A stretch of DNA of 42,566 nt, taken from the NCBI GenBank assembly GCA_016875435.1, contig VGRE01000006.1, positions 1 to 42,566 of the forward strand, read 5' to 3'. The notes beneath the pieces are model-generated. The model saw only the letters and a program-made list of their open reading frames with translations. It searched no databases and was not told where the DNA came from. Of this stretch, positions 28,355-33,430 are shown piece by piece (the first letter of the stretch is position 1; the number at the start of each line of letters is the position of its first letter). This DNA is from Deltaproteobacteria bacterium (GTDB taxonomy: Bacteria; Myxococcota_A; UBA796; SXON01). The translations under genes and the position numbers were made by a program.

Positions 28355-29737
28355 ATGTTCCGCGGCAAGTTCCGTCGCATCCACTTCGTCGGCATCGGCG
28401 GATCCGGCATGTCCGGCATCGCCGAGGTGCTGATCACCATGGGCTTTGCCGTCACCGGCAGCGACACGAAGCGCTCCGCCGTGGTGGAGCGTCTCTGCCA
28501 GCTCGGCGCCGTCGTCCACCCCGGGCACGCGGCCGCCCACGTGGTCGGGGCCGACGTGGTGGTCCGGTCTACCGCCATCCGCGACGACAACCCCGAGGTC
28601 GTCGCTGCCCAGGCGGCCAAGATCCCGGTCATCCCGCGAGCGGAGATGCTGGCCGAGCTGATGCGGCTCAAGTACGGCATCGCCATCGCGGGCACGCACG
28701 GCAAGACCACCACCACGTCGATGGTGGCCCGCTGCCTGCACTCCGCCGGGCTCGACCCCACCGTGGTGATCGGGGGACGGCTCGACAGCTTCGGGTCGAG
28801 CGCGCGGCTCGGCCAGGGCGAGCACCTCGTGGCGGAGGCCGACGAGAGCGACGGCAGCTTCCTGTTGCTCGACCCCACCGTGGCGGTGATCACCAACATC
28901 GACCCCGAGCACATGGAGTACTGGTGCGACTTCGACCGCCTGGTCGACGGCTTCGTGAGCTTCGCCAACAAGGTGCCGTTCTACGGCTTTGCCTGTGTCT
29001 GCCTCGACCACCCGGTGGTGCAGCGCTGCCTCCCTCGGTTGCGTCGCCGGGTGATCACCTACGGCTCTGGCGCGCAGGCCGACTACCGCCTCGATCGGCT
29101 CCGGGCCGACGGGCGGATGCTGTCCTTTCGCGCCTGGCGAGGCGAGGTCGAACTCGGGGAGATCAACCTCCACCAGCCGGGCCGTCACAACGCCTTCAAC
29201 GCGCTCGCGGCGGTGGCGGTGGGCATCGAACTCGACCTGAGTTTCGCGCAGGTGGCGCAGGGCCTCGAGGGCTTCACCGGGGTTGACCGCCGCTTCTCGC
29301 AGCGCGCCGACGTGGGCGGGGTGTTGATCGTCGACGACTACGGCCACCATCCCGTGGAGATCGTCGCCACGCTCACGGCCGCCGCCGAGGGCTACGAGGG
29401 GCGCCGCATCGTCGCCGTGTTCCAGCCGCACCGCTACTCGCGCGTGGCCAGCTTGAAGGAAGATTTCTGTCGTGCGTTCAACGCGGCGGCGGTGGTGGTG
29501 GTGGTCCCGGTGTACGCCGCAGGCGAGGCGCCCATCGAGGGCGCGACCCAGGAGGCGCTGGTGCAGGGGTTGGTCGACCACGGGCACCGCGGCGTGGTGA
29601 CGGCCCCGTCCGTGGATGGCGCCGTCGATGTCCTGGTGTCGCTGGTCCGGCCCGGCGACCTCGTGATCACCCTCGGCGCGGGCGATGTCAATCGTGCCTG
29701 CGGCGCGCTCGCCGAGCGCCTCGGCGCGCGCGGCTAG
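28355..29737 (+). CDS. murC: UDP-MurNAc-L-Ala ligase
   Basis: HFVGIGGSGMSGIAEVL, AGTHGKTTTTSMVA, EADESDGSFLLL, DDYGHHPVEI, FQPHRYSR. Confidence 0.95.
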   Translation: MFRGKFRRIHFVGIGGSGMSGIAEVLITMGFAVTGSDTKRSAVVERLCQLGAVVHPGHAAAHVVGADVVVRSTAIRDDNPEVVAAQAAKIPVIPRAEMLAELMRLKYGIAIAGTHGKTTTTSMVARCLHSAGLDPTVVIGGRLDSFGSSARLGQGEHLVAEADESDGSFLLLDPTVAVITNIDPEHMEYWCDFDRLVDGFVSFANKVPFYGFACVCLDHPVVQRCLPRLRRRVITYGSGAQADYRLDRLRADGRMLSFRAWRGEVELGEINLHQPGRHNAFNALAAVAVGIELDLSFAQVAQGLEGFTGVDRRFSQRADVGGVLIVDDYGHHPVEIVATLTAAAEGYEGRRIVAVFQPHRYSRVASLKEDFCRAFNAAAVVVVVPVYAAGEAPIEGATQEALVQGLVDHGHRGVVTAPSVDGAVDVLVSLVRPGDLVITLGAGDVNRACGALAERLGARG

Positions 29738-29740
29738 GCG

Positions 29741-30499
29741 ATGGGCTGGCCCGGTCGCGAGGAGGAGCCGATCGCCCGGCACTTGCCCTTGCGGGCCTGC
29801 CCCGGCGCTTTCGAGCGATGGGCGGTGGTCGACAGCGAGGAGGAGCTGGTGGCCGCCATCCGCGCCGCGCGGGCCGAGAAGCTGCCCGTGCGCGTGCTAC
29901 ACCCCTTCGCCGACGCTCTCCCCCCCGAGGGCGGCATGGGCGGCCTGTTCCTGCGCCTCGGCCGCGACTTCGAGGACATCCGCGAGGCCGGCGAGGGGAT
30001 CGACGTCGGCGCCGCCTGCCCGGTGGCACGCGTCGGCCTGCGCCCGGGTTTCGAGTTGCTCGCGCGGGCCGGGGGGACGGTCGGCGACGCGCTCGACGAG
30101 GGCTGGCTGCGCCCGTGGGTGACGGGCGCCCGGCGTTTCAAGGGACGGGGCTTCGAGGACGCCGCCGAGTTGGAGCCCGACCCGAAGGCGCTCGTGGTGC
30201 GCGTCCGGTTGCGCCCGGCGGGCAAGCTGGCCCCGGTGCGCGCGGGGACGATCTTCCGCGAGCCGGGAAGGCGTGGTCTCGACCTCCGGGCCCTGCTCGC
30301 CCGCAGCGGCGTGTCCGGGGTGCGCCTTCACGGCGCCTCGCTGGCCGAGGACGACGCGGCGGTGCTGGTGAACCGGGGCGAGGCGTCGCCGCGGCAGGTA
30401 CGATTGCTGGTGGAGGCGGTACGCGAGCGCGTGCAAGTGACCACCGGGGTGGAGCTGGACCTTCGATTGTTGCCCCCGGGACGGGGCGGGAGGATGTGA
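29741..30499 (+). CDS. Degenerate MurB-like protein (possible pseudoenzyme) in the murB position
   Basis: Position between murC and ddl. C-terminal RAGTIFREPGRRGLDLRALLARSGVSGVRLHGASLAEDDAAVLVNRGEASPRQVRLLVEAVRERVQVTTGVELDLRLL aligns by eye with the MurB C-terminal domain; N-terminal FAD motifs are eroded. Confidence 0.55.
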   Translation: MGWPGREEEPIARHLPLRACPGAFERWAVVDSEEELVAAIRAARAEKLPVRVLHPFADALPPEGGMGGLFLRLGRDFEDIREAGEGIDVGAACPVARVGLRPGFELLARAGGTVGDALDEGWLRPWVTGARRFKGRGFEDAAELEPDPKALVVRVRLRPAGKLAPVRAGTIFREPGRRGLDLRALLARSGVSGVRLHGASLAEDDAAVLVNRGEASPRQVRLLVEAVRERVQVTTGVELDLRLLPPGRGGRM

Positions 30500-31431
30500 T
30501 GGTGGACAAGTCAACGGCCCGCGTGGGCGTACTCATGGGTGGGATCTCGCCGGAGCGGCCGATCTCGATGAAGTCGGGCGCGGCGGTGTCGCGCGCCTTG
30601 CGCGCCCGGGGCTGGACGGTGGTGGACATCGACGTGGGCCGGGACCTCCCTTCGCAGCTGCTCGCCCACCGGGTGACGCACGCCTGGCTGGCGCTGCACG
30701 GGCCCCTCGGGGAGGACGGCTGCGTGCAGGGCCTGCTCGAGGTGATGCGCATCCCGTACACCGGCAGCAACGTGCGCGGCAGCGCCATCGCCATGGACAA
30801 GATCGCCACCAAGCGATGCCTGCGCGACACGGGCATCCCCATGGCGAGCGATCGTAGCTGGCGCCGCGGCGATGATTTCCCGGTCGACCTGAAGTTTCCG
30901 GCGATGGTCAAGACCCCAGAGGGGGGATCCACGCTCGGCATCCGCAAGGTGCACGACGCGGCCGAGCTCGAGGCGGGGCTCCTGTACTGCCTGGACTTCG
31001 CGCCAGAGGTGCTCATCGAGGAGTTCATCGAGGGCTACGAGATCACCGTGGCGGTGCTCGAGGGAACGCCGCTGCCCGTGGTGAAGATCGAGCCGCTCAA
31101 CGAGATCTTCGACTTCGCCGCCAAGTACGAGAAGGGCAAGACGCGCTACCTCGTGCCCGCGCCCATCCCCGAGCCGGTGGCGACCCGGGCGCAGGCCCAC
31201 GCGCGCACCGCCTACCGCGTGCTCGGCCTCTCGGGCGTGGCCCGCGCCGACTTCATCGTCGATGCCGACGGCACCCCCTGGTTCCTCGAGATCAACACGC
31301 TGCCGGGCATGACGGAAACCTCGCTGTCGCCGATGGCGGCGGGGCAGGTGGGGATGAGCTTCGAGGACCTGGTGGAGCGGCTGTTGAACGGCGCGCGCTG
31401 CCACGTGCCTGACTTCGCGAGAGGCAGCTAG
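30499..31431 (+). CDS. ddl: D-alanine-D-alanine ligase
   Basis: VGVLMGGISPERPISMKSG, LHGPLGEDGCVQGLLEVMRIPYTGS, SAIAMDK, FLEINTLPGMTETSL. Confidence 0.94.
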   Translation: MVDKSTARVGVLMGGISPERPISMKSGAAVSRALRARGWTVVDIDVGRDLPSQLLAHRVTHAWLALHGPLGEDGCVQGLLEVMRIPYTGSNVRGSAIAMDKIATKRCLRDTGIPMASDRSWRRGDDFPVDLKFPAMVKTPEGGSTLGIRKVHDAAELEAGLLYCLDFAPEVLIEEFIEGYEITVAVLEGTPLPVVKIEPLNEIFDFAAKYEKGKTRYLVPAPIPEPVATRAQAHARTAYRVLGLSGVARADFIVDADGTPWFLEINTLPGMTETSLSPMAAGQVGMSFEDLVERLLNGARCHVPDFARGS

Positions 31432-31510: not shown

Positions 31511-32221
31511 TTGTCCCGCTACCTCCGCCCGATCCTGTGGTCTCTTGGCGCCGCCGCTCTCGCGGGCGCGATCGCGTGGCTGCTCGTCGTGTCGCCCCAC
31601 GTTCGCTACCGGCACCTGCGGGTGGTGGGCGCGCAGCGGGCCGAGGCGGCGCACCTCCGTCACCTCGCCGACCTGCCACTCGGCGAGCCTCTGGTCCTGC
31701 TCGACCTCGACCGCGCCGCGGCCGGGGCGGAGCGCCACCCCTGGGTGGCGAGCGTCGAGGTGCGGCGGAGTTTCCCGGACACGGTGGTGCTCCAGGTGCG
31801 CGAGCGCGAGCCGGTAGCGATCGTGCAGGTTGACGGCCTCTACCTGGTTGACGAGAGCGGCGAGCCTTTCGTGCGCGCCCTGCCCGGCGACCTCGACCAC
31901 CCCTACCTCACCGGCCTGTCGCCGGTCATGGCCGCCGAGCAGCCCGAGGTGGCGCGCCGGGTGGTACGCGAGGGCCTCGCTTGGCTGGCGGTGCTCCAAG
32001 ACAAGGGCGGCCTCCCGGAGAGCGCGATCTCCGAGCTTCACTTCTCCGAGCAATCGGGTTACACGGTCATTCTCCGCAACGGCGGGGAAGTGCTCCTCGG
32101 CTTCGCCGACCGCGAGCGCGCCTCCCGCCTGGTGCAGTTGGCTCGGAACGGTCTCGACCTCAGTCGGCCCCACCGAGTCGATCTCGCCTCCGACCGTCTC
32201 GCGGTGGTCACGCCCCTCTAG
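31511..32221 (+). CDS. ftsQ: FtsQ/DivIB-like division protein with POTRA domain
   Basis: N-terminal TM; VRYRHLRVVGAQRAEAAHL...HPWVASVEVRRSFPDTVVLQVREREPVAIVQVDGLYLVDESGEPF. TTG start. Confidence 0.88.
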   Translation: MSRYLRPILWSLGAAALAGAIAWLLVVSPHVRYRHLRVVGAQRAEAAHLRHLADLPLGEPLVLLDLDRAAAGAERHPWVASVEVRRSFPDTVVLQVREREPVAIVQVDGLYLVDESGEPFVRALPGDLDHPYLTGLSPVMAAEQPEVARRVVREGLAWLAVLQDKGGLPESAISELHFSEQSGYTVILRNGGEVLLGFADRERASRLVQLARNGLDLSRPHRVDLASDRLAVVTPL

Positions 32222-32299
32222 CCCCTCCCCGTCTCTCTCCCCGCTCCCTCCACTCAACCCTCCCCGGCCCAGCCGGACAGATCCCCGCAGAGGTCTCCC

Positions 32300-33430
32300 A
32301 TGATTGACATTGTCGAGAACGAACTCGTTGGCGCGCGCATCAAGGTCGTCGGCGTCGGTGGTGGCGGCGGCAATGCCGTCAACCACATGGTCAACTCCGG
32401 CCTCTCCGGCGTGGAGTTCATCGCGCTCAACACCGACGCGCAAGACCTCAAGCGCTCGCTCGCCGGCCGCCGCTTCCAGCTCGGCGCCCAGCTCACCAAG
32501 GGCCTCGGCGCGGGCGCCGACCCCGAGGTGGGTCGCGAGGCGGCCCTGGAAGACCGCGACCGGATCGCCGAGCTGCTCGCCGGCGCCGACATGGTCTTCG
32601 TCACCGCCGGCATGGGCGGCGGCACGGGCACCGGCGCCGCGCCGGTCGTCTGTGAAGTGGCGCGTGAGCTGGGCTGCCTCACCGTCGGCGTAGTCACCCG
32701 GCCCTTCTCCTTCGAGGGCAAGAAGCGCAAGCGCCAGGGCGACGAGGGCATCGAGCTGATGATGCGCAGCGTCGACACGCTCATCACCATCCCCAACCAG
32801 CGCCTGCTGTCGATCGTCGACGATCGCACCCTGTTCACCGAGGCCTTCGGCATGGCCGACGACGTGCTCTTCCAGGCGGTGAAGGGCATCTCCGACCTCA
32901 TCAACGACCAGGGTGTCATCAACGTCGACTTCGCCGACGTGCGCACCATCATGGCCAACAAGGGCCGCGCGCTCATGGGCGTGGGCAAGGGCACGGGCAG
33001 CCACCGCGCCGTGGATGCCGCCCAGTCCGCGATCAGCTCGCCGCTGCTCGACGACATCAGCATCGCCGGCGCCACCAGCGTGTTGCTCAACTTCACCGGC
33101 GGCCCGGGCATCACCATCTACGAGGTGAACGAGGCGGCGCAGATGGTGTCGGAGGAAACGGCGGAAGACGAGAACGTCATCTTCGGCCTGGTCATCGACC
33201 CGAAGATGGGCGAGGAGGTGCACGTCACCGTCATCGCCACCGGCTTCCAGGAGGCCCGCGCCGGACGGCAGAACACCACCGTCCCGGCCGAGGTGCGCAT
33301 CGCGCGCGCGGTCAACGCCAACCTCCAGCCCACCGCCCCCGGCAAGCGGGCGCTGAACAGCGGCTACGAGTCGCTGCGCGACGACTACGACGTGCCCACC
33401 TACGGCCACGGCTTCTTCCGCCGCGACTAG
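32300..33430 (+). CDS. ftsZ: Cell division GTPase FtsZ
   Basis: [33 protein letters not shown], KNxx-type C-terminal [16 protein letters not shown] tail. Confidence 0.97.

What the first reader, a model, noticed from the sequence alone, without database searches (positions are those of the whole stretch)
29741..30499. MurB-position gene appears to encode a catalytically dead, FAD-eroded MurB relative
The gene sits exactly where murB belongs (murC-[x]-ddl), and its C-terminal half follows MurB (GTIFREP for GSFFKNP; ARSGVSGVRLHGASLAEDDAAVLVNRGEASPRQVRLLVEAVRERV for the MurB C-terminal domain). The hallmark motifs have eroded: the GGGSN loop reads LHPFADA, IPGTVGGAVxMNAG reads AGGTVGDALDEG, the YRxSxF motif is not visible, and the catalytic Ser of GSFF is replaced by Thr. 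The frame is intact and tightly packed (start 3 nt after murC, stop overlapping ddl), so it is maintained rather than decaying. It could be a structural or regulatory pseudoenzyme in the Mur pathway.
Basis: partly seen in the sequence, partly recalled or inferred. Interest (0 to 1): 0.62.

Follow-up and report, generated by a model that had tools for sequence, protein, structure and literature searches.

The report
Dead MurB twin kept beside murC
In a whole order of uncultured Myxococcota-type bacteria (many from lakes), the cell-wall gene murB at its usual place has lost the residues it needs for chemistry, while a normal murB sits elsewhere in the genome; the dead copy is still conserved and under strong selection, so it probably has a second, non-chemical job.

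Summary
ORF 29741-30499 (252 aa) lies between murC and ddl. It is homologous to MurB over its full length (Pfam MurB_C 1.4e-11; profile-profile E 1.7e-39) and is predicted confidently to fold like MurB (pLDDT 91.5; the best PDB hits are all MurB). It keeps none of seven residues that are invariant in working MurBs: FAD-loop Asn, MNAG Asn, YR Arg, RRK Arg, general-acid Ser, FKNP Asn and C-terminal Glu (now Arg). The genome encodes a complete canonical MurB on another contig.

The pattern is order-wide. By my count 52 of 54 genomes have the eroded gene, after murC wherever the locus was read. The dcw copies keep 0-3 of the 7 residues; the off-locus copies keep all 7. dN/dS is 0.02-0.24 over ten pairs, in both halves of the protein, so it is maintained, not decaying. 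Elsewhere in the phylum almost every genome has one MurB. Two other families of the class also have eroded dcw MurBs, which points to parallel loss.

The best reading is a MurB pseudoenzyme with a structural or regulatory role in the Mur pathway. That role is inferred, not shown. One genome has cleanly lost the gene, so it is not strictly essential.

The parts
28355..29737 (+). murC (460 aa), upstream neighbour; ends 3 bases before the finding
   Evidence: Mur_ligase, Mur_ligase_M and Mur_ligase_C all far above cut-off
29741..30499 (+). eroded dcw MurB homologue (pMurB), 252 aa, intact frame
29825..30031 (+). remnant of the FAD-binding half (residues 29-97), below the Pfam cut-off
   Evidence: FAD_binding_4 17.2 bits against a cut-off of 26.4
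29900..29920 (+). HPFADAL in place of the FAD loop GNGSNLL (residues 54-60)
   Evidence: N of GNGSN is 30/30 in intact MurBs, 1/40 in dcw copies (D25, R12)
30068..30103 (+). AGGTVGDALDEG in place of VPGTVGGAVxMNAG; MNAG deleted (residues 110-121)
30218..30223 (+). junction (residues 160/161) where the RRKATQP segment (flavin-side Arg) is missing
30227..30460 (+). MurB C-terminal domain
   Evidence: PF02873 1.4e-11; same place in the genome search
30248..30250 (+). Thr170 at the general-acid Ser position
   Evidence: Ser 30/30 intact, 4/40 dcw
30464..30466 (+). Arg242 at the catalytic Glu position
   Evidence: Glu 30/30 intact; dcw R27, A5, E3 of 40
30499..31431 (+). ddl (D-Ala-D-Ala ligase), downstream neighbour; start overlaps the stop of the finding
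   Evidence: Dala_Dala_lig_C 7.9e-47

Best explanation
The gene is the dcw-cluster murB of this lineage, turned into a pseudoenzyme. Shown: it has the MurB fold by prediction; it has lost the FAD-loop, substrate and catalytic residues; a separate canonical MurB exists in the genome; and the dead copy is held under purifying selection in the murC-x-ddl slot throughout the order. Inferred: catalysis was taken over by the off-locus MurB, which released the dcw copy from chemistry, and the dcw copy stayed because its protein surface does something else, most likely as a non-catalytic partner (scaffold or regulator) of the neighbouring Mur enzymes, MurC first, then Ddl or a wider Mur assembly. Conserved Arg residues (R72, R195, R230, R242) suggest a re-purposed ligand or protein contact. 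The confidence given is for the maintained pseudoenzyme; for the specific partner role it is about 0.45.
For: Homology and fold. Loss of key residues: 0 of 7 kept in the window, 0-3 of 7 in 40 dcw copies, 7 of 7 in 29 off-locus copies. Second MurB. Synteny. Selection: NG86 dN/dS 0.015-0.24 over ten pairs from three families, both halves constrained, against 0.025-0.13 for MurC of the same pairs, and 0.19 for the canonical MurB in one pair. Tree: dcw copies of the order one clade (100/98), off-locus short copies another (99/94). Rest of phylum: nearly always one MurB; outgroup MurBs keep the motif set apart from a few single changes. Parallel case: in family f9 two genomes have an intact dcw murB as their only MurB (L097, L098), and two have an eroded dcw MurB plus a long-type MurB elsewhere; MurC places all four in one clade. 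MurB and MurC are fused in Verrucomicrobia (PMC4803751) and Mur enzymes co-localise in Caulobacter (cited in PMC6420597), which makes a partner role plausible.
Against: No direct evidence for any partner. The only computational test, an AF2 model of MurC read through into pMurB, was inconclusive (pTM 0.51, thin alignment). One genome of the order, G060, has murC followed by ddl with no gene between, so the protein is dispensable there. In V. spinosum the MurB domain was not needed for MurC activity (PMC4803751). pMurB evolves faster than MurC in most pairs.
Confidence: 0.82

Rival explanations
1. The protein has been neofunctionalised: the old active-site cleft now binds a different ligand (for example a UDP-sugar or another phosphate compound) as a sensor, or catalyses a different reaction.
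For: The catalytic Glu is replaced by Arg in 27 of 40, and R72, R195 and R230 are conserved in 38-40 of 40 although variable in working MurBs.
Against: The altered FAD loop and the deleted segments remove much of the old cleft; apart from E9 and H14 near the N-terminus, no new invariant acid, base or nucleophile stands out in the dcw copies.
Confidence: 0.3
2. It is still a working MurB with unusual residues, and the second copy is redundant.
For: It occupies the murB slot, and Thr could in principle replace Ser.
Against: None of seven invariant residues is kept, including the Arg of YR and the Glu; a complete MurB exists in the same genome; other dcw copies have Gln, Arg or Ala at the Ser position.
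Confidence: 0.03
3. It is a remnant kept only because it couples translation of murC to ddl; the protein itself does nothing.
For: Tight spacing and a stop-start overlap with ddl; the conserved GRGGR tail in family f1 coincides with the likely ribosome-binding site of ddl.
Against: dN/dS is well below 1 in both halves of the protein over ten pairs. The copies read have open frames; the search flagged one TGA in the matched span in G050 and G059, of which G050 is open to its end and G059 was not read. G060 lost the gene and keeps murC and ddl, so coupling does not need it.
Confidence: 0.06
4. The canonical MurB on contig C165 is contamination of the assembly, so the dcw gene would be the only MurB.
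For: The assembly has 4.35% estimated contamination.
Against: Members of the same genus and family carry an orthologous off-locus MurB, several on long contigs, and C165 falls among them inside family f1.
Confidence: 0.02

Closest known systems
MurB, UDP-N-acetylenolpyruvoylglucosamine reductase (e.g. S. aureus 1hsk; Brucella ovis 9dtk)
   Same: Full-length homology, predicted fold, position in the dcw cluster between murC and ddl
   Different: About 40 residues shorter than the canonical MurB of the same genome; FAD loop, MNAG, YR, RRK, Ser, Asn and Glu all lost; fails every NCBIfam MurB cut-off
MurB/MurC fusion of Verrucomicrobium spinosum (PMC4803751)
   Same: Coupling of MurB and MurC; MurB activity could not be shown in vitro
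   Different: That fusion complements an E. coli murB mutant in vivo, so it is active; here the proteins are separate and the MurB is eroded
Genomes with two active murB genes (Bacillus cereus group; from memory, not tested here)
   Same: Two murB genes in one genome
   Different: Here only one copy keeps the catalytic residues

Membership tests
MurB (UDP-N-acetylmuramate dehydrogenase) | MurB C-terminal domain (PF02873) above cut-off | tested here: met
   44.9 bits against a cut-off of 27
MurB (UDP-N-acetylmuramate dehydrogenase) | MurB fold | tested here: met
   AF2 pLDDT 91.5; the 18 best PDB hits are MurB, TMq up to 0.81
MurB (UDP-N-acetylmuramate dehydrogenase) | NCBIfam MurB equivalog cut-offs | tested here: not met
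   Best 52.6 bits against 259; TIGR00179 37.6 against 144.5
MurB (UDP-N-acetylmuramate dehydrogenase) | FAD-binding loop GxGSN and xPGTVGGAxxMNAG | tested here: not met
   HPFADAL; MNAG deleted
MurB (UDP-N-acetylmuramate dehydrogenase) | Catalytic and substrate residues Arg (YR), Ser, Glu | tested here: not met
   YR segment deleted, Ser to Thr170, Glu to Arg242
MurB (UDP-N-acetylmuramate dehydrogenase) | FAD bound, EP-UDP-GlcNAc reduced with NADPH | not testable with these tools
   needs purified protein
Pseudoenzyme (dead homologue of an essential enzyme, maintained) | An active-looking homologue in the same genome | tested here: met
   G000:C165, 293 aa, all motifs intact
Pseudoenzyme (dead homologue of an essential enzyme, maintained) | Purifying selection on the dead copy | tested here: met
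   dN/dS 0.015-0.24 over ten pairs
Pseudoenzyme (dead homologue of an essential enzyme, maintained) | A non-catalytic function | tested here: inconclusive
   AF2 test of a MurC partner gave pTM 0.51 with a thin alignment

The most novel reading that the evidence does not exclude
A dedicated MurB pseudoenzyme acts as a scaffold or allosteric regulator of the cytoplasmic Mur pathway, fixed across an order of Myxococcota and arisen at least twice in the class, each time with another MurB on hand for the chemistry. That would mean MurB has a non-catalytic role at the dcw site which selection preserves when catalysis is removed.
Probability: 0.4. Interest if true: 0.78.

Novelty: new variant of a known kind. 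Interest (0 to 1): 0.6.

Why it matters
Whether Mur enzymes have structural jobs apart from catalysis, in a cytoplasmic Mur complex, is hard to test because the enzymes are essential. A lineage in which evolution has split MurB into an active copy elsewhere and a dead copy kept next to murC is a natural separation-of-function experiment. It is also a warning for annotation: the dcw 'murB' of this order should not be taken as the reductase.

Tried and rejected
AF2 on MurC read through the TAG into pMurB: two alignments placed pMurB rows over MurC columns (A4, judged from its identities; A6, checked) and were discarded; the usable one gave pTM 0.51 and a poorer pMurB model than alone, so it says nothing either way. 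The murD numbers are void (wrong ORF matched) and ddl was not measured. Literature searches for a MurB pseudoenzyme or a MurB duplication in Myxococcota found nothing relevant; the library holds open-licence papers only. The neighbourhood of the off-locus murB is conserved mainly among close species, so it gives no functional hint. Independent erosion in f9: the tree groups the dead f9 copies with the order's dead copies, but holding the four f9 copies together is not rejected (AU p = 0.156), and long-branch attraction is possible; MurC supports one f9 clade. Contamination, a still-working MurB, and mere translational coupling were considered and judged unlikely, as listed under rivals.

Full report
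What is there. The ORF at 29741-30499 is intact, 252 aa, three bases after murC and with its stop overlapping the ddl start. Pfam finds MurB_C at 1.4e-11 and a sub-threshold FAD_binding_4 match over the N-terminal half. All NCBIfam hits are MurB equivalogs, but far below their cut-offs. A profile of 40 dcw homologues aligns with a profile of 29 canonical MurBs over nearly the whole length, E = 1.7e-39. AlphaFold2 gives pLDDT 91.5 and pTM 0.87, and the 18 best PDB matches are all MurB. So the protein is MurB-derived from end to end.

What it has lost. Seven positions were followed that are invariant in the 29 off-locus MurBs: Asn of the GNGSN FAD loop, Asn of MNAG, Arg of YR, Arg of RRK, the general-acid Ser, Asn of FKNP, and the C-terminal Glu. 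In E. coli MurB, Arg159 and Glu325 hold the substrate carboxylate and Asn233 the diphosphate (review PMC12844806, citing Benson 1997); Ser229 is the general acid (title of Benson 1997, cited there); Arg214 lies near the isoalloxazine ring (PMC10058398). The match of these columns to the E. coli numbers is by motif. The window protein keeps none of the seven, and the YR and RRK losses are deletions of whole segments. Over 40 dcw copies, 25 keep none, 8 keep one, 4 keep two and 3 keep three; all 29 off-locus copies keep seven. The Glu position has become Arg in 27 of 40, and Arg72, Arg195 and Arg230 are conserved in 38-40 of 40 although variable in working MurBs.

A second MurB. The same genome has a 293-aa MurB with every motif intact on contig C165. 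Of the 24 order genomes at least 90% complete in the phylum sample, all but G025 have a strong MurB outside the dcw slot; G025 has a partial one. Most off-locus copies are of a short type and form one clade; in f2 and some f3 members the off-locus copy is a long type of about 350-370 aa.

Distribution. I count 52 of 54 genomes of the order with the eroded gene in the class search. In the loci fetched it sits after murC, normally followed by ddl. Of the two without it, G026 shows no close murC in its assembly, while G060 has murC directly followed by ddl, which looks like a real loss. In the rest of the phylum almost every genome has a single MurB, in the outgroups read mostly beside murC or other dcw genes and with the motif set intact apart from a few single changes. 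The named records of close relatives are metagenome-assembled genomes, several evidently from lakes, filed at NCBI as Deltaproteobacteria or Myxococcales (phylum Myxococcota) or simply as proteobacterium; a few carry plainly wrong species names. The exact GTDB order was not established.

Selection. NG86 dN/dS over ten close pairs from families f1, f3 and f5 is 0.015-0.24 for the dead copy, in both halves of the protein, against 0.025-0.13 for MurC in the same pairs; the canonical MurB gave 0.19 in one pair. This is not a decaying gene.

Origin. The dcw copies of the order form one clade (100/98) and the off-locus short copies another (99/94). In family f9 of the same class, two genomes have an intact dcw MurB as their only one (with Cys for Ser), and two have a dead dcw MurB together with a long-type MurB; the f8 genome has a dcw copy lacking the YR, Ser and Glu residues plus a long-type MurB. 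MurC groups the four f9 genomes together. Holding the four f9 MurBs together is not rejected (p-AU 0.156). The simplest history is at least two losses of catalysis, each with another MurB on hand. This is inferred; the MurB tree taken alone groups the dead copies and does not show it.

Function. Shown: dead by residue criteria, folded by prediction, maintained, and tied to the murC-ddl slot. Not shown: what it does. A partner of MurC or of a Mur assembly is favoured by position, by the MurB/MurC fusions of Verrucomicrobia (PMC4803751), and by the co-localisation of Mur enzymes in Caulobacter (cited in PMC6420597). Against it, in V. spinosum the MurB domain was not needed for MurC activity (PMC4803751), and my AF2 test was inconclusive. 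A re-purposed ligand site with the new Arg residues is the main rival.

Verdict. The added facts are the second MurB, the order-wide conservation, the selection, the Glu-to-Arg replacement, and the likely parallel loss in sister families.

Noticed in passing
window 32221-32300 (ftsQ to ftsZ junction); genomes of the order: FtsA appears to be missing from the whole order: 0 of 30 order genomes match SHS2_FTSA, whereas all 62 sampled phylum genomes outside the order do, including f8 and f9. In the window ftsQ is followed directly by ftsZ. SepF was also not found in 24 of 24. How FtsZ is tethered to the membrane there is open.
   Followed up: partly
L097, L098 (dcw MurB of G064, G067, family f9): Otherwise intact, single-copy MurBs have Cys instead of the general-acid Ser (AGCVFKNP, AGCLFKNP).
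   Followed up: no
L131, L149 (G097, G121, family f24): A MurB with the Tyr of YR changed to Thr or Pro and the Asn of FKNP changed to Thr or Ala, in genomes that also have a long-type MurB: possibly another MurB losing function.
   Followed up: no
L074, L076, L080, L084: Public genome records of these bacteria are titled Klebsiella pneumoniae or Bifidobacterium breve, evidently wrong labels.
   Followed up: no
window 30460-30499: The conserved C-terminal tail PPGRGGR of family f1 overlaps the likely ribosome-binding site of ddl (GGGAGG), so its conservation may be partly a DNA constraint.
   Followed up: no
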